48,599 nucleotides of DNA from Mycobacteriales bacterium. GTDB taxonomy: Bacteria > Actinomycetota > Actinomycetes > JAFAQI01 > DASSKL01. The notes beneath the pieces are model-generated. The model made no database searches. It had not been told where the DNA came from and saw only the letters and a program-made list of their open reading frames with translations. Numbering within the stretch: position 1 is the first letter of the stretch; each line of letters begins with the position of its first letter. This document shows, piece by piece, positions 4,699 to 19,688 of this stretch. The position numbers were made by a program, and so were the translations under genes. The stretch spans positions 1 to 48,599 of the forward strand of contig DASSKL010000073.1 of NCBI GenBank assembly GCA_035690485.1, given 5' to 3'.

Positions 4699-5034
4699 GT
4701 GCTCCTCACCGACCTGCTCACGACCGAGCCGACCCACGAGTCGATCGGCGAGCTGCTGCACGAAGTCATCGACCCCGAGCTCGGCGTCAACATCATGGAC
4801 CTCGGGCTCGTGCGCGAGATCGCCATCGCGGAGACCGGCGCGGTCGGGATCGCGATGACGTTGACGACGCCGGCCTGCCCGCTCGGGCCCTACATCACCG
4901 AGCAGATCCAGGACCTGCTGGGTCAGGTCACCACCGTCACCGACGTCGAGGTCGAGGTCGTCTGGAACCCCCCGTGGGACCCCGACCACGACATGACCGA
5001 CTACGCCAAGCAGCTGCTCGGCTGGCGCCACTGA
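4699..5034 (+). CDS. DUF59/MIP18 family metal-sulfur cluster assembly factor (SufT/PaaD-like)
   Basis: The 111-residue DUF59 protein belongs to a family that helps assemble or transfer iron-sulfur clusters (SufT, MIP18, and PaaD of phenylacetate oxygenase). It carries the signatures DPELGVNIMDLGLV (residues 25-38) and TTPACPLG with the conserved Cys60. The GTG at 4699 is preceded by GAGGAG. The hemerythrin gene starts 13 bases after its stop, so the two form an operon. The pairing with an oxygen/NO-binding hemerythrin suggests Fe-S protection or repair under oxidative or nitrosative stress. No paa or suf genes are near, so the client is unknown. Confidence 0.87.
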   Translation: MLLTDLLTTEPTHESIGELLHEVIDPELGVNIMDLGLVREIAIAETGAVGIAMTLTTPACPLGPYITEQIQDLLGQVTTVTDVEVEVVWNPPWDPDHDMTDYAKQLLGWRH

Positions 5035-5047
5035 CAAGGAGTGCACC

Positions 5048-5521
5048 ATGCCCGCCACCACCGACATCGTCGCCGCGATCACCGGCCACCACGCCGAGCT
5101 CGAGGCGGCCCTCGACGCCCGCGTGGACGCGGTCGTCCGTGCCGCCCGCGACGGCGCCGACCCCGCTGCTGCGGTCGCCGAGCTTCGCGGCCTGCTCGAC
5201 CACGACATCGTCCCGCACGCTCGCGCCGAGGAGGACGTGCTCTACGCCGCCGCCGTCACGCCGGACCTGCGCCCGCTCGTCACCGGCATGATCTTCGAGC
5301 ACGAGACGCTGCTCGGGCTCGCCACCGACCTGGCCGGGGCGACCGCCGCGGTCGACTCGGCGTCCGTCGCCGCCGCGATCCGCGCGGTGTTCGTCGGCCA
5401 CGTACGCCGCGAGAACGAGCTCCTGCTTCCTGCACTGGCCGCCGACCCCGCGGTCGACCTGCCGGCGCTGCTCCCGGTCATGCAGCAGCGGTTCGCGGAC
5501 TACCGCGCCGTCGCGTCCTGA
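5048..5521 (+). CDS. Hemerythrin HHE-domain protein
   Basis: The 157-residue four-helix protein has the HHE pattern that binds a di-iron centre: His14/His15, His52 and His57 followed by Glu61/Glu62, His85 (FEHETLL), then His118 and Glu122/Glu124 (GHVRRENELLLP). Relatives bind O2 or NO or repair Fe-S centres (YtfE/RIC type). The ATG at 5048 follows an AAGGAG ribosome binding site. It is the second gene of an operon with DUF59, and a 9-bp hairpin lies directly after it. The ligand (O2 or NO) cannot be decided from sequence. Confidence 0.9.
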   Translation: MPATTDIVAAITGHHAELEAALDARVDAVVRAARDGADPAAAVAELRGLLDHDIVPHARAEEDVLYAAAVTPDLRPLVTGMIFEHETLLGLATDLAGATAAVDSASVAAAIRAVFVGHVRRENELLLPALAADPAVDLPALLPVMQQRFADYRAVAS

Positions 5522-5555: not shown

Positions 5556-6182
5556 TTACGGCAGGTGCGCCTGGTCCAGAGCGGACTGCAGCGACTGCCG
5601 GTAGCCGTCGGAGGTGTAGGTCGCGCCGGACACCGTGTCGATGTTCGCGCTCTGCGCCTGCAGGGCTTCTTGCCGCAGCTGCGGGCCGGCGTAGGAGCTG
5701 ATCTCCTGGCTTCGTGGCGTGTCGTTGGGCAGCTGGAGAGCCTGCACGTCGGTGATGCGACCGCCGCTGACCCAGATCTCGACCTGCACCGGACCGTACG
5801 GCGTGTCTTCGGTCTGACCCGTGTAGGTCGTGGTCGTCGGCCGGGGACTGGGCGCCGGCGCGGCGCGGGTCGCGGCCGGCGCCGGGGCCGTCTTGACCGG
5901 TGCAGTCGCGGTCCGTGCGGCCGGTGCCCGCGATGCGGGCGCGCTCGCGGGCACCGCAGCGCGGACCGGCGCCACCACAGGACGCGACCGGGACGCCGGC
6001 TGGGCCGTTGCCGCGACGGGCGGGTGCGCCGGCGCGGCGGAGATCTTCGGCGCAGCCGTCGCGGGCGCGACGGCAACCGGCCGGGCGGCCGGCTCCGCCG
6101 GTGGGGCGGCCTGCTCGTAGCGCAGCAGCGCGACGATCGCGACGGTCGTGAGCCCCACAGCGACCGATGGGCGGACGCTCAT
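5556..6182 (-). CDS. FMN-binding domain protein with Ala/Pro-rich linker
   Basis: The 208-residue exported protein has an N-terminal membrane anchor or signal (residues 5-20), a long Ala/Pro/Thr-rich linker (about 25-118) and a C-terminal FMN_bind domain (119-208). SGATYTS at 185-191 matches the site where RnfG and NqrC proteins carry FMN covalently through a Thr, here probably Thr190. The linker would let the flavin domain reach away from the membrane. It is the last gene of a leftward operon, four bases after the ferric-reductase-like gene, so it probably accepts electrons from that flavocytochrome outside the membrane. Confidence 0.88.
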   Translation of the reverse strand: MSVRPSVAVGLTTVAIVALLRYEQAAPPAEPAARPVAVAPATAAPKISAAPAHPPVAATAQPASRSRPVVAPVRAAVPASAPASRAPAARTATAPVKTAPAPAATRAAPAPSPRPTTTTYTGQTEDTPYGPVQVEIWVSGGRITDVQALQLPNDTPRSQEISSYAGPQLRQEALQAQSANIDTVSGATYTSDGYRQSLQSALDQAHLP

Positions 6183-6186
6183 GCGC

Positions 6187-7554
6187 TCACCACGCGAAGC
6201 TCTCCGTGTGGATGCGCGGGGCGGCGACCCCCGCAGCCTGCAGCAACGTGATCATCTCGCTCACGAGCCCCTCGGGACCACAGAGGTAGGCGTCGACCTC
6301 ACCGGGCTCGGTGAGGAGTCGGGTCAGCTGGCCGGCCCGGAGGAACCGACGTACCTCCTCCTCGTGCCGGCCGCCGGCGAGGACGTGCAGGTCGACGTGG
6401 CCGGTCTGCGCCAGCCGGTCGAGCTCGGTCTGGAACCACGCCTGCCCGCGACCGCTGACGCGGTAGATCAGTGTGACGTGGGTCCGCGCACGCGCCGCTT
6501 CCTGGGCCATGGCGAGCATCGGGGCGATGCCGGAGCCGCCCGCGACGAGCACCAGGTGCCGCCCACGGGCGAGCCGGCGGGTGACCGCGCCGTAAGGCCC
6601 TTCGAGGATGACCGGGACGCCTTCGCGGAGTCGGTGCAGCGTGCTGGTGTGGTCACCCACCGGCTTCGCGGTCATCCGCAGCCATCGGCCGTTCGGTGCC
6701 TGCGACACCGAGAACGGGTGCGCGTGCCACCAGCCGGACGGGGTCAGGAAGCGCCAGCGGAAGTACTGGCCGCCCTCGATCGGCAGCCGCGACAGGTTGC
6801 GCCCGCCGACGTAGACGCTGACCGACCCGTCGGCCTCGGGGATGACGTCGACGACCCGGAACCGGTGCCGGCTCCACAGCAGGAGCGGGTCACCGACCCG
6901 GTAACGCAGCACGAGCAGCAGCACCACGACGTGCGCACCGATCCAGCCCGCGCGCATCGTCGCGTGCCGGGCGAACTGCGCACCGTCGACCAGCTGGTGG
7001 ACGATCGCCAGCGCGATGCCGACGTAGGCCAGCAGGTGCAGGGTGTGCCACACCTCGTAGGGCAGCAGGCGGCGCAGCGGCTTCAACGACGTGACGACGA
7101 CGAGCGCGACCAGCGCCAGCCCGACGGTGCCGAGCAGCACGTAGGGATAGGTGAGGACCAACGTCGCCGTCTCGTGCGAGACGGAGGCGTGGTCGTACGC
7201 CGCATAGCCCACGATCACCGCGCCGACGTGGACGGCGACGAGGCCCATGACGTAGGAGCCGAGCCAGCGATGCGCGCCGGTCAGCCAGTCGGTGCCCACC
7301 CGGCGCTCCAGCCAGGGAACCCTGGCCAGCAGCGCGACCTGTACGAGCAGCAGGTAGGCGGCGAGCATGCCGGCCGCCCGGGCGACGCCGACGAGCACGT
7401 CGCCGCCGCTGCGCACCGTCCGCGTGGCGGGGTCCTGCCACCACGGCACGAGCACCAGGAGAAAGCCGGTCGCGCAGGCGGCCGTCACCAGGAGCGCGGC
7501 CTCCCGCCGGCTCAACGCGACGCTCGCCGCAGGCCCGGGGCGCACCGCCGTCAT
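6187..7554 (-). CDS. Ferric-reductase-like transmembrane flavocytochrome
   Basis: The 455-residue product joins a six-helix ferric-reductase/NOX-type membrane domain (about 18-220) to a ferredoxin-NADP reductase module (about 230-455). Candidate haem ligands are His95, His109, His170/His173 and His186. FAD binding is shown by HPFS (279-282) and GPYG (319-322). NAD(P)H binding is shown by AGGSGIAP (338-345) and a C-terminal LCGPEG. It should take electrons from cytoplasmic NAD(P)H, pass them through FAD and haem, and deliver them outside. Its neighbours are an FMN-binding protein, a four-helix membrane protein and a DoxX-Rieske fusion. The terminal acceptor is not evident. Confidence 0.88.
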   Translation of the reverse strand: MTAVRPGPAASVALSRREAALLVTAACATGFLLVLVPWWQDPATRTVRSGGDVLVGVARAAGMLAAYLLLVQVALLARVPWLERRVGTDWLTGAHRWLGSYVMGLVAVHVGAVIVGYAAYDHASVSHETATLVLTYPYVLLGTVGLALVALVVVTSLKPLRRLLPYEVWHTLHLLAYVGIALAIVHQLVDGAQFARHATMRAGWIGAHVVVLLLVLRYRVGDPLLLWSRHRFRVVDVIPEADGSVSVYVGGRNLSRLPIEGGQYFRWRFLTPSGWWHAHPFSVSQAPNGRWLRMTAKPVGDHTSTLHRLREGVPVILEGPYGAVTRRLARGRHLVLVAGGSGIAPMLAMAQEAARARTHVTLIYRVSGRGQAWFQTELDRLAQTGHVDLHVLAGGRHEEEVRRFLRAGQLTRLLTEPGEVDAYLCGPEGLVSEMITLLQAAGVAAPRIHTESFAW

Positions 7555-7617
7555 CGCCGGTCGCCGCCCGTCGAGTGACCTGCGGACCGTGCAGCGATCA
7601 ACGGCGGACCGCCAGGT

Positions 7618-8433
7618 TCACGACCGTCCCAACGACGAGACGGGTGCGGAGGAAACAGACCCGCGATGAGGGGTCGCGGTCATGCCTTGCGAGTCGTCGT
7701 GGATCCGGTCGAACTCGTGGTGGTGAAACGCGCGAACGCTGCCGTCGGTCCACCCGCCCGCGAGGTGCAGGACCAGCACCCCGATGGCCGCGCCCAGGGC
7801 CAGCGTCCCGAGCATGACGACGCCCCGGCCCACGGACCCGGGCACCCGCCGACGGTGCGGTCTTCCGCCCGCCGCGACCTGCACCGCCGGGACAGTGCGC
7901 GCGAGCACGTGCAGGCCCGTTGCGACCAGCCAGGCGATGAACGACGCCTGGTGCACGGTGAGCGGGCTGATCCGAAAGCCGACCACGCTGCCCAGCGAGC
8001 TGAACGCCCCGTCTCCCAGGGGGACGAGCGCGAGACCGCTGCCCACCACGGCGAGACCGGTCAGGACGACCAGTGGGCCGAGCACCCGCAGGACCAGCGG
8101 CGGCGGCCCAGCGGCGCGGTAGGCCGATGCGCCCAAGTAGTAGCGCACGATGCGCCAGCCGGTCGTCGCCGTCTTCAGCAGCACCAGCGGGATGAGGAAC
8201 GCGCCGAGCAAGATGTGGATGTTGATCATCGCGTTCAGCGACAGCAACGTGAAGCACTCGACGAGGAACGCGACGAGTAGGAAGAGCCCCGCCCAGGCGG
8301 TCAGGCGCGCGTTGCCGGCGGGACCCCCGGTGTGCGGGGCCACCGGGTCCTCTCGATGGGCGGTGCCCATCGCCGTCGTGACGACGTCGTTGAGCACCGG
8401 CGGGAGCCCCGTCTCGGACGCGAACTGCTGCAT
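7618..8433 (-). CDS. Four-to-five-helix membrane protein, cytochrome b-like, function unknown
   Basis: The 271-residue product has hydrophobic helices at about 45-65, 70-88, 118-140, 160-178 and 205-225. Histidines occur inside or at the edge of helices (NIHILLG, TVHQASF, GLHVLAR), reminiscent of small di-haem cytochrome b or DUF4405-like proteins, but I do not recognise the family with confidence. The C-terminal tail is His-rich. It sits between the DoxX-Rieske gene (8 bases upstream) and the flavocytochrome gene (63 bases downstream), so it is probably a membrane electron carrier of the same system. Confidence 0.75.
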   Translation of the reverse strand: MQQFASETGLPPVLNDVVTTAMGTAHREDPVAPHTGGPAGNARLTAWAGLFLLVAFLVECFTLLSLNAMINIHILLGAFLIPLVLLKTATTGWRIVRYYLGASAYRAAGPPPLVLRVLGPLVVLTGLAVVGSGLALVPLGDGAFSSLGSVVGFRISPLTVHQASFIAWLVATGLHVLARTVPAVQVAAGGRPHRRRVPGSVGRGVVMLGTLALGAAIGVLVLHLAGGWTDGSVRAFHHHEFDRIHDDSQGMTATPHRGSVSSAPVSSLGRS

Positions 8434-8441
8434 GCCTCTCC

Positions 8442-9689
8442 TCAGTCGACCCGGATCTCACCGGACACGACGTGTACCGGGATGCCGTCGAGCGGCGCCG
8501 GCGGCGGCCCACCGAGGACCTGGCCGGTCTTCGCGTCGTACGTGCCGCCATGGCAGGGGCAGACGAACTCCTCGCTGGACGGGTCGAAGTCCACGGTGCA
8601 GCCGGCGTGGGTGCACACGGCCGAGAAGGCGACGAAGCGATCGCTGCTCGCGTGCACGACCCAGGCGGGCTGGCCGCTGGCCGGGTCGGTGAAGCTGCGG
8701 GCTTGGCCGACGGGCACCGCCGAGACGGGACCGACCGCGGTCCCCGGCGGTGGGGCAGCGGGCGCGGTCGGCCGGGATGTCGTCGCCGAGGACGTCGCGG
8801 ATGGCTGCGGCGTCGCCCGCCGCGACGTGGGCAATGCTCGACGTTGCGTGCTCGTGGTGCCGCCGGCAAGGCGACCGGCTGCCGCGGTCAGCCCGCCGCC
8901 GGCTCCGGCGACGACCGCGACGAGAGCCGCGACCCGCGCGCGCCCGAGGAGGGTCCGCCGGTCGATCTCGTCGCGAGCCGCCGGCGACAGCGGCTCGCGG
9001 ACCGGGAAGACCGGGCAGTCGGCACGGCGGCCGCACTCGCCGGAGGGTCGAAGCCCGCAGCTCGACCCGTGGGCGCACAGCTGGCGCAGCCGCGGGACCT
9101 CGACGCCGACGACGGCCGGTAGCCCGCCGACCCCGGTCGACAACCGGGCCCGCTCGGTCAGCCAGCCGTCGACGCTGAGGACCCCGCCGGCCCCGAAGCC
9201 GACCAGGATCGTCCACGCGAACAGGAAGACGATGTCCGAGCCGTAGTAGTAAGGCGTGGTGTTCCAGCTGACGGTGAGCAGGAACGTCAGCGACAGCAGC
9301 ATCCCGCCGATCGCCGCGAGCCGGGTGAAGAGGCCGAGCAGCGCGCCCACGCCCACGGCGAGCTCGCCGAAGGCGATGAGCAGGCCCACCAGAGTCGGCG
9401 CGTGCGCCGACAGCTGCAGCAGCGGCCCGATCGGGCTGGTCGCCTGCAACGAGTGCATCTGCCCGACGACCGACGCCGGGTTGTGCGGGTCGAGGTACGC
9501 CGGATTGGCGAGCTTCTGCAGGCCGGCGTACATGAACGTCACCGCAAGGAAGCCGCGCAGGGGCAGGATCAACCAGCCGGGTTGCCGCAGCCCGAGCTCG
9601 GTCCAACGGCGACCGGCCAACCACGCGGGGGGCGCCGGCGGCGGCGCGGTGCGCACCGCCGATGTCTGCCCCGTCCGCTGGAACGTCAC
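8442..9689 (-). CDS. DoxX-family / Rieske [2Fe-2S] fusion protein
   Basis: The 415-residue fusion has a DoxX/DoxD-like four-helix domain (about 40-180), a linker with four cysteines (205, 211, 219, 225), a twin-arginine stretch RRTLLGRARVA (244-254) before a hydrophobic segment, a Thr/Pro-rich spacer and a Rieske domain. The cluster ligands lie in CTHAGC (359-364) and CPCHG (377-381). The internal RR motif suggests the folded Rieske domain is exported by the Tat route after the DoxX helices insert, as in actinobacterial QcrA. It is the first gene of the leftward electron-transfer operon and is divergent from a two-component system. DoxD is part of thiosulfate:quinone oxidoreductase in archaea; that role is not shown here. 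Confidence 0.87.
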   Translation of the reverse strand: MTFQRTGQTSAVRTAPPPAPPAWLAGRRWTELGLRQPGWLILPLRGFLAVTFMYAGLQKLANPAYLDPHNPASVVGQMHSLQATSPIGPLLQLSAHAPTLVGLLIAFGELAVGVGALLGLFTRLAAIGGMLLSLTFLLTVSWNTTPYYYGSDIVFLFAWTILVGFGAGGVLSVDGWLTERARLSTGVGGLPAVVGVEVPRLRQLCAHGSSCGLRPSGECGRRADCPVFPVREPLSPAARDEIDRRTLLGRARVAALVAVVAGAGGGLTAAAGRLAGGTTSTQRRALPTSRRATPQPSATSSATTSRPTAPAAPPPGTAVGPVSAVPVGQARSFTDPASGQPAWVVHASSDRFVAFSAVCTHAGCTVDFDPSSEEFVCPCHGGTYDAKTGQVLGGPPPAPLDGIPVHVVSGEIRVD

Positions 9690-9756
9690 GACCCCAGAGT
9701 GACGCGGCGGTGACTAAGAAGTCGTTCAGCGCGGCGCGCCGGCGATGCCGCGGCCG

Positions 9757-9762
9757 TACCGT
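9757..9762 (+). promoter_or_regulatory. Likely -10 box of a leaderless regulator transcript
   Basis: TACCGT lies six bases before the GTG at 9769, the spacing expected if transcription begins at the start codon. No Shine-Dalgarno sequence precedes this start, which fits a leaderless message. Confidence 0.4.
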
Positions 9763-9768
9763 TGCACC

Positions 9769-10449
9769 GTGACGGCACCGGGCGACGCGCTGACCGGCGT
9801 CCGGGTGCTGCTGGTCGAGGACGACCGATCGATCGCGCAACAGCTGACCCGCGGGCTCGAGCGGGCCGGCTGCTCCGTCATCGCCGTCCGGACCGGATCC
9901 GAAGCGCTGCAGCACTCGGAGGCCGACCTGATCCTGCTCGACCTCGGCCTGCCGGACGTCGACGGCATGCCCCTCTGCGCCCAGCTGCGCGGCTGCACGG
10001 ACGCGCCGATCATCGTCGTCACGGCGCGAGACGCCGAGCCCGACCGGGTTCGCGCCCTGGACAGCGGTGCCGATGACTACGTGGTCAAGCCGTTCGGGTT
10101 CGCCGAGCTGATGGCGCGGATGCGAGCAGTGCTGCGCCGGGCGGAGCGCAGCCAGCCGACCCTCCTCCGGTACGGGCCGCTGTCGGTCGACCTCGACGGC
10201 CGGCGCGTCGAGGTGGACGGCGCGTCGGTGGTGCTGACCGGCAAGGAGTTCGACATCCTCTCGTGTCTGATCACCGAGCCCGGCCGAGTGGTCAGCCGCG
10301 AGGAGATCTTCGACCGGGCCTGGGACGAGCACTGGTATGGCCCCACCCGGGTGCTCGACGTCCACATCGCGGCCTTGCGGCGCAAGCTCGGCGACCCATC
10401 GCTCATCGAGACCGTCTACGGGCGCGGGTTCCGGTTGCGGGCACCGTGA
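9769..10449 (+). CDS. OmpR/PhoB-type response regulator
   Basis: The 226-residue product has a receiver domain with acidic pocket Glu17-Asp18-Asp19, phosphorylation site Asp58, Thr85 and Lys107, then a winged-helix DNA-binding domain whose recognition region includes TRVLDVHIAALRRKLGD and ends in VYGRGFRL. The GTG at 9769 is preferred over an ATG eight codons upstream because neither has a ribosome binding site and a -10 box fits a leaderless start at 9769. Its stop overlaps the start of the sensor kinase gene. It is divergent from the DoxX-Rieske operon, its most likely target. Confidence 0.93.
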   Translation: MTAPGDALTGVRVLLVEDDRSIAQQLTRGLERAGCSVIAVRTGSEALQHSEADLILLDLGLPDVDGMPLCAQLRGCTDAPIIVVTARDAEPDRVRALDSGADDYVVKPFGFAELMARMRAVLRRAERSQPTLLRYGPLSVDLDGRRVEVDGASVVLTGKEFDILSCLITEPGRVVSREEIFDRAWDEHWYGPTRVLDVHIAALRRKLGDPSLIETVYGRGFRLRAP

Positions 10450-19376: not shown

Positions 19377-19688
19377 ATGAGCTGGGCGGACGCCTGTCCT
19401 TTGGCCGATCTGGCCGACGAGCTGCCGGCGGGCGTGGTCGTCGACGGCGTGGCCGTCTGCCTGGTCCGGCTGGCGCACGAGGTCTTCGCCGTACACGACG
19501 AGTGCACCCACGAGGCGGTGCCCCTGTCGGAGGGCGACGTCGAGGACGGCACGATCGAGTGCTGGCGGCACGGCTCCCGGTTCGATCTGCGCACCGGTGC
19601 CGTACTCAACCCACCGGCCGTCAAGCCGGTGGCGACCTACGCCACCCGCGTGAATGGCGGGACCGTGCAGGTCGACGTGGGCGCCTGA
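19377..19688 (+). CDS. Rieske-type [2Fe-2S] ferredoxin
   Basis: The 103-residue soluble protein is almost entirely a Rieske domain with ligands Cys43-Thr-His45 and Cys62-Trp-Arg-His65. There is no signal peptide or membrane anchor, so it acts in the cytoplasm, as ferredoxins of ring-hydroxylating dioxygenases and related small NirD-like proteins do. ATG at 19377 gives the normal family length; an upstream GTG adds 16 atypical residues. A cupin gene follows after 16 bases. No oxygenase partner lies next to it. Confidence 0.9.
   Translation: MSWADACPLADLADELPAGVVVDGVAVCLVRLAHEVFAVHDECTHEAVPLSEGDVEDGTIECWRHGSRFDLRTGAVLNPPAVKPVATYATRVNGGTVQVDVGA

What the first reader, a model, noticed from the sequence alone, without database searches (positions are those of the whole stretch)
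5556..9689. Four-gene membrane electron-transfer operon under a divergent two-component system
DoxX-Rieske fusion, a His-containing four-helix protein, a ferric-reductase-like flavocytochrome and a tethered FMN-binding protein lie in tight order. Together they give a plausible chain from NAD(P)H through FAD and haem to an extracytoplasmic FMN and a Rieske cluster. I know no established named pathway with this exact set.
Basis: partly seen in the sequence, partly recalled or inferred. Interest (0 to 1): 0.65.

Follow-up and report, generated by a model that had tools for sequence, protein, structure and literature searches.

The report
Mosaic cell-envelope electron-transfer locus
Four neighbouring genes in an uncultured actinomycete encode membrane redox proteins that look like two separate, widely conserved electron-transfer modules brought together beside a sensor-regulator pair; the unusual part is an unannotated cytochrome-like membrane protein that turns up again and again beside flavin-based electron-transfer genes.

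Summary
In detail: four tight same-strand genes (DoxD/DoxX-Rieske fusion A; unannotated membrane protein B; ferric-reductase-like flavocytochrome C; membrane-anchored FMN_bind protein D) face a divergent response regulator/histidine kinase. But the four-gene order was found nowhere else. It is a mosaic. A with an adjacent two-component system is conserved across the phylum; A-B across the order; neither has C-D beside it, and four A-B genomes lack a C-type reductase. C-D is the known 'MsrQ-like' flavinylation module of Actinobacteria (FMN_bind beside it in 29 of 30 loci, ApbE in 24), here with ApbE encoded elsewhere. So one obligatory NAD(P)H-to-Rieske chain is not supported. A looser link is: B homologues lie near flavinylation genes in 29 of 80 loci, and one other genome (L125) unites A, the two-component system, B and a different NADH/haem/ApbE module. 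B matches no Pfam or NCBIfam family, but H73, K87, H161 and H175 (H-x13-K, H-x13-H) are invariant, suggesting a haem-b cytochrome with an unusual His/Lys site. In passing: ApbE clusters near B without FMN_bind encode a membrane tether ending in serine (19 of 19 loci), a candidate new ApbE substrate.

The parts
8442..9689 (-). Gene A: DoxD/DoxX (4 TM) - Cys4 loop - twin-arginine TM5 - linker - Rieske 2Fe-2S domain; predicted Sec/Tat dual-targeted
   Evidence: Pfam DoxD 4.6e-15, Rieske 1.6e-12; CTHAGC 8598-8615, CPCHGG 8544-8561, RRTLL 8946-8960; twin Arg kept in nearly all aligned homologues
7618..8433 (-). Gene B: unannotated 5-helix membrane protein, candidate haem-b cytochrome (H73-x13-K87, H161-x13-H175)
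   Evidence: No Pfam/NCBIfam hit; four residues invariant in every homologue that spans them, 91 distinct; AlphaFold core pLDDT 92
6187..7554 (-). Gene C: ferric-reductase-like (MsrQ-like) transmembrane domain fused to FAD- and NAD(P)H-binding domains
   Evidence: Pfam PF01794 5.6e-18, PF00175, PF08022; His pairs H95/H109 and H173/H186, GGSGIAP, CGP
5556..6182 (-). Gene D: N-terminal TM anchor, ~100-residue Pro/Ala linker, FMN_bind domain with flavinylation site
   Evidence: PF04205 3.9e-10; DTVSGAT 5619-5639 matches D-x-x-[ST]-G-A-[ST]
9745..10449 (+). OmpR-type response regulator
   Evidence: Response_reg 3.1e-25, Trans_reg_C 2.4e-24; 67-74% identical neighbours of A in L030, L031, L032, L175
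10446..11768 (+). Sensor histidine kinase
   Evidence: HATPase_c, HAMP, HisKA; 54-58% identical neighbours of A in L030, L031, L032, L175
9714..9730 (-). Conserved element GCTGAACGACTTCTTAG upstream of A; candidate regulator-binding or promoter site
   Evidence: Present in all five loci of the order with this two-component system facing A, absent from the other loci scanned; only exact match in the genome to the slightly shorter genome-wide pattern
7661..7679 (-). Terminator-like hairpin near the end of B, between the A-B and C-D modules
   Evidence: 2 overlapping hits, 0.4 expected; weak

Best explanation
The locus is a mosaic of two envelope electron-transfer modules next to a two-component system. 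Module 1 (A-B): A is a Sec/Tat-targeted DoxD/DoxX-Rieske protein, its Rieske cluster outside the membrane; B is probably a b-haem cytochrome with an outer His/His site and an inner His/Lys site, passing electrons between the membrane (quinone pool or cytosolic side) and the Rieske cluster. Module 2 (C-D): a standard actinobacterial MsrQ-like system in which C takes electrons from NAD(P)H via FAD and two haems to the covalent FMN of D, loaded by the ApbE encoded on contig C50. The two-component system switches on at least A-B in response to an envelope redox signal. Shown: gene content, motifs, conservation of each module and absence of the combined order elsewhere in the genomes searched. Inferred: haem in B, electron direction, that both modules feed a shared outside acceptor, and the signal.
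For: Domains and motifs. A-B adjacency in seven genomes of the order including this one, none of the others with C-D beside it. A with an adjacent two-component system in other classes of the phylum, in two layouts. FMN_bind next to C-type reductases in 29 of 30 loci, ApbE in 24, A or B only in the window. The only other close C-D pair (54/56% identity) lies on a different contig from A-B in its genome. ApbE present in trans, single copy. TatC and a separate QcrA/QcrB present, so A is not the bc1 Rieske protein. B near flavinylation genes in 29 of 80 loci and a response regulator in 36 of 80; L125 combines A, the two-component system, ApbE, MsrQ-like, NuoF-like and B.
Against: Haem in B is not shown: no significant sequence or fold match to any cytochrome (best sensible fold hits are Wolinella fumarate reductase cytochrome b, E about 0.4, TM about 0.37). 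No co-transcription data; the 63-nt B-C gap and a weak terminator-like hairpin leave open that C-D is separately expressed. Most genomes are draft MAGs, so some absences may be assembly gaps.
Confidence: 0.55

Rival explanations
1. One reading: one co-expressed chain NAD(P)H - FAD - haem (C) - FMN (D) - Rieske (A), with B as an extra haem relay, working as one dedicated pathway in this organism.
For: Tight co-directional genes; FMN-to-Rieske transfer is downhill by usual potentials (general knowledge); L125 assembles equivalent parts independently; L082 has C-D-B in a row.
Against: The exact set is unique to this genome; A-B persists in four genomes of the order with no C-type reductase, so C-D cannot be A's general donor; possible terminator between B and C.
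Confidence: 0.25
2. A is mainly a quinone- or thiosulfate-linked oxidoreductase of the thiosulfate:quinone type (DoxD), with B its membrane partner; C-D is an unrelated neighbour (for example an assimilatory ferric reductase) that landed beside it by chance.
For: DoxD is the best Pfam hit for A; C-D stands alone in G150.
Against: A scores 21.7 bits against a cut-off of 300 for the TQO large-subunit equivalog; no DoxA subunit seen nearby; B recurs beside flavin modules, so chance juxtaposition is less likely.
Confidence: 0.2
3. B is not a cytochrome but a non-redox membrane assembly or sensor protein of the two-component system, and the invariant His/Lys residues bind a metal or quinone. (This concerns B only and can be combined with the readings above.)
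For: No significant match to any cytochrome family; frequent neighbourhood with two-component systems (36 of 80).
Against: Weak Pfam hits of single members are mostly haem-b families (Ni_hydr_CYTB 1e-4, Ferric_reduct, Sdh_cyt, DUF4405); H-x13-H and H-x13-K spacing is that of transmembrane haem ligand pairs; frequent company of redox genes.
Confidence: 0.2

Closest known systems
MsrQ-like flavinylation-associated systems of Actinobacteria (Meheust et al. 2021, PMC8238504)
   Same: C has PF01794 plus NAD-binding domain; D is an FMN_bind protein with DTVSGAT next to it.
   Different: apbE is not in the cluster (it is on contig C50 with a second reductase-FMN pair); A and B are additional and not part of the described system.
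Actinobacterial Sec/Tat dual-targeted Rieske proteins (Tooke et al. 2017, PMC5449189)
   Same: Twin-arginine motif directly before the last TM helix that carries an outside Rieske domain; that paper mentions a five-TM Rieske homologue in Kitasatospora (KSE_30950).
   Different: The first four helices are a DoxD/DoxX domain; the genome has a separate QcrA.
Cytochrome bc1/b6f Rieske-cytochrome b pair
   Same: Rieske cluster motifs; a neighbouring membrane protein with H-x13-H on one helix.
   Different: B has five helices, Lys in place of the fourth His, no cytochrome b family match; Rieske motif is CHGG rather than CHGS.
DUF4405 and FezC flavinylation-associated cytochromes (Huang et al. 2024, PMC11334425)
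   Same: Small transmembrane proteins with invariant ligand-like histidines found beside apbE clusters.
   Different: B matches DUF4405 only at E 0.055 in 1 of 19 members and has three His plus one Lys.
Thiosulfate:quinone oxidoreductase DoxDA
   Same: DoxD domain.
   Different: Far below the equivalog cut-off; fused to Rieske; no DoxA seen.

Membership tests
MsrQ-like flavinylation system (C-D) | PF01794 transmembrane haem domain, usually with C-terminal NAD-binding domain | tested here: met
   His pairs
MsrQ-like flavinylation system (C-D) | Adjacent FMN_bind protein with D-x-x-[ST]-G-A-[ST] | tested here: met
   PF04205, D182TVSGAT
MsrQ-like flavinylation system (C-D) | apbE in the gene cluster (typical, not universal, in PMC8238504) | tested here: not met
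   Only ApbE of the genome is on contig C50; available in trans. 24 of 30 sampled C-type loci have it adjacent, so absence does not exclude membership
MsrP-MsrQ methionine sulfoxide reductase | MsrQ equivalog score; MsrP beside it | tested here: not met
   34.8 bits against cut-off 130; no MsrP among the neighbours scanned
Cytochrome bc1/b6f complex (A-B) | Rieske ligands C-x-H-x-G-C and C-P-C-H-G | tested here: met
   CTHAGC, CPCHGG
Cytochrome bc1/b6f complex (A-B) | Cytochrome b with two H-x13-H helices | tested here: not met
   B has H-x13-K and H-x13-H, no Pfam hit; a separate QcrA/QcrB exists on contig C37
Thiosulfate:quinone oxidoreductase (A) | TQO large-subunit equivalog score and DoxA partner | tested here: not met
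   21.7 bits against cut-off 300; no DoxA among the neighbours scanned
Sec/Tat dual-targeted Rieske protein (A) | Twin-arginine motif directly before the last TM helix; Tat system present | tested here: met
   R244RTLL then TM 253-271, conserved in homologues; TatC found. Targeting itself not testable here
DUF4405 cytochrome (B) | PF14358 match | tested here: not met
   E 0.055 in 1 of 19 members, none for the window protein
Haem-b membrane cytochrome (B) | Binds haem b | not testable with these tools
   Only invariant ligand-like residues; PDB fold matches not significant

The most novel reading that the evidence does not exclude
B is the first recognised member of an undescribed family of flavinylation- and Rieske-associated haem-b cytochromes with an invariant His/Lys haem site, acting as the shared hub that different electron-input modules (FRE/FMN_bind, MsrQ-like/NuoF-like with a serine-ended tether, DoxX-Rieske) plug into under redox-sensing two-component control.
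Probability: 0.3. Interest if true: 0.7.

Novelty: new variant of a known kind. Interest (0 to 1): 0.45.

Why it matters
If B is a cytochrome, it adds an unannotated component to flavinylation-based envelope electron transfer in Actinomycetota and gives a handle on what these many uncharacterised systems deliver electrons to. The DoxX-Rieske protein with its two-component system is conserved across the phylum, and I found no paper describing its function. The comparison also shows how redox modules are recombined around a common partner.

Tried and rejected
Profile comparison of B with MsrQ-like and FRE-NAD families: no significant match. B profile against all PDB sequences: nothing at E up to 10. 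Two AlphaFold models of B against PDB folds: no hit at E below 0.001; the first, full-length model gave meaningless matches. Search for the promoter element elsewhere in the genome: no second exact copy, so no wider regulon inferred, and none at the second reductase-FMN-ApbE locus. Papers with DoxX and Rieske and FMN-binding and operon: none held; DoxX with Rieske and fusion: only two unrelated papers. The first neighbourhood map used a crude gene caller and missed genes; replaced by tblastn mapping.

Full report
What is there. A (8442-9689) joins a DoxD/DoxX domain, a twin-arginine-preceded fifth helix and a Rieske domain. B (7618-8433) matches no Pfam or NCBIfam family. C (6187-7554) is a ferric-reductase-like haem domain fused to FAD- and NAD(P)H-binding domains with all four haem histidines. 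D (5556-6182) is an N-terminally anchored FMN_bind protein with a complete flavinylation motif D182TVSGAT; the motif definition D-x-x-[ST]-G-A-[ST] is from PMC12052999. A response regulator and histidine kinase face A.

Is the four-gene set conserved? No. In the 13 held genomes of the order, A occurs in 10 and stands directly next to B in seven including the window (G000, G150, G120, G086, G054, G036, G013); none of the other six has C or D beside it. Four of those A-B genomes (G086, G036, G054, G120) have no C-type reductase at E below 1e-60 and only weak reductase-domain matches otherwise. The closest relative of C-D (54% and 56% identity) sits alone on another contig of G150, flanked by genes with weak BNR-repeat matches. 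In the phylum sample, DoxX-Rieske proteins in other classes are again next to a response regulator, mostly with its kinase, either A-RR-HK or HK-RR facing A (L227, L229, L231, L233-L237, L239), never next to C or D. Among 30 loci of C-type reductases, 29 have FMN_bind and 24 have ApbE within the fetched flanks; A or B appears only in the window. So C-D is the MsrQ-like flavinylation module described for Actinobacteria (PMC8238504), and the window is a mosaic.

Is the association meaningless? Probably not. Of 80 B loci from named genome contigs, 29 have at least one flavinylation gene within 6.5 kb (MsrQ-like 22, NuoF-like 19, ApbE 17, FRE-NAD 6, FMN_bind 6) and 36 have a response regulator. 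My rough estimate of chance, one to three such clusters per genome of several Mb, is about 1% of loci; the 80 are related sequences and some contigs are short, so this is not a formal test. B sits in three kinds of company: beside ApbE - MsrQ-like - NuoF-like (sometimes with a small ferredoxin; Solirubrobacterales, Acidimicrobiales, Marmoricola, Streptomyces shenzhenensis), beside FRE-NAD and FMN_bind (L073, L082, L088, L107, L110, L126), and beside DoxX-Rieske (the order of the window; also L091, L044). L125/L046, the same contig of a palsa MAG, combines DoxX-Rieske, the two-component system, ApbE, MsrQ-like, NuoF-like and B in one locus: the same kinds of parts as in the window, assembled independently with a different cytosolic input. 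That keeps a functional link between A, B and a flavin module plausible.

What B is. Every homologue that spans the positions, among 91 distinct sequences, keeps H73, K87, H161 and H175. The pairs H73-x13-K87 and H161-x13-H175 sit on helices 2 and 4 of a five-helix model (core pLDDT 92); by the topology I infer, H73 and H161 face each other near the outer side and K87 and H175 near the cytoplasmic side. This is the spacing of transmembrane haem pairs, with Lys in one slot. Single members hit Ni_hydr_CYTB (1e-4), Ferric_reduct (2e-3), Sdh_cyt and DUF4405 weakly; most of the weak hits are haem-b families (Frag1, in four members, is not). No profile or fold comparison is significant. Haem in B is therefore an inference. 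Related small cytochromes beside apbE clusters (DUF4405, FezC) were recognised only in 2024 (PMC11334425), so an undescribed one is credible.

What A is. The Rieske motifs are bc-type with CHGG in place of the usual CHGS, which by general knowledge should lower its potential. The genome has its own QcrA/QcrB and TatC. Twin arginines precede TM5 in nearly all homologues, as in actinobacterial Rieske proteins shown to need both Sec and Tat (PMC5449189), where a five-TM Rieske homologue of Kitasatospora is mentioned. A loop motif C-x5-C-x7-C-x5-C is shared, with spacing varying by a residue, by only part of the family.

Regulation. A 17-nt element (9714-9730) upstream of A is conserved in all five loci of the order where this two-component system faces A and absent from ten other loci scanned. 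The near-identical pattern used genome-wide has a single exact match in the genome, at this place. It may be the regulator's site or a promoter. A terminator-like hairpin lies near the end of B (weak). Nothing ties C-D to the same regulator except position.

Judgement.

Side result. While mapping B neighbourhoods I found that every ApbE - MsrQ-like cluster near B lacking an FMN_bind gene has, immediately before apbE, a single-TM protein with a low-complexity tether ending in serine (VVSGGS, VVSGSS, VTSGAS, TTSGAS, VTSGS, QSSGS, LVTSQS, STHTS, TTHAS): 19 of 19 distinct loci with apbE, where the search did not select for serine; two more (L100, L123) were seen beside MsrQ-like genes. It lacks the Asp said to be strictly conserved in the known motif (PMC12052999), so flavinylation of the terminal serine is a proposal, listed under noticed in passing.

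Noticed in passing
L089 6728-7189, L101, L108 6697-7200, L111 6055-6522, L116 6596-7192, L094, L102, L103, L125 and others: In ApbE - MsrQ-like (- NuoF-like) clusters near B that lack FMN_bind, the ORF abutting apbE encodes a single-TM, low-complexity tether ending in Ser (VVSGGS, VTSGAS, VTSGS, LVTSQS and similar), 19 of 19 distinct loci. Candidate ApbE substrate with FMN on the C-terminal serine; the usual Asp of the motif is absent.
   Followed up: partly
L125 1-6573 (same contig as L046): One locus joins DoxX-Rieske, RR/HK, ApbE, MsrQ-like, NuoF-like and B: an independent assembly of the same kinds of parts as the window.
   Followed up: yes
L029 4498-9558 (own contig C50): Second FRE-NAD / FMN_bind pair with the genome's only ApbE and its own divergent two-component system; RR only 38% identical to the window's.
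   Followed up: partly
window 9015-9077 (A residues 205-225): C-x5-C-x7-C-x5-C motif in the predicted cytoplasmic loop of A, shared with small spacing changes by only part of its homologues; possible metal or Fe-S site.
   Followed up: no
window 9714-9730: Conserved 17-nt element upstream of A, only where the cognate two-component system is adjacent.
   Followed up: partly
window 4699-5521: FeS_assembly_P (SUF-associated-like) gene and a hemerythrin-domain gene converge on D from the plus strand.
   Followed up: no
window 19380-19640: A further Rieske-domain match on the plus strand of the window.
   Followed up: no
L082 1754-2907: Two tandem FMN_bind genes between FRE-NAD and B.
   Followed up: no
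L240, L241, L242: Genomes of genus g25 carry two DoxX paralogues (open frames of about 200 and 550 aa) without a Rieske match beside them.
   Followed up: no
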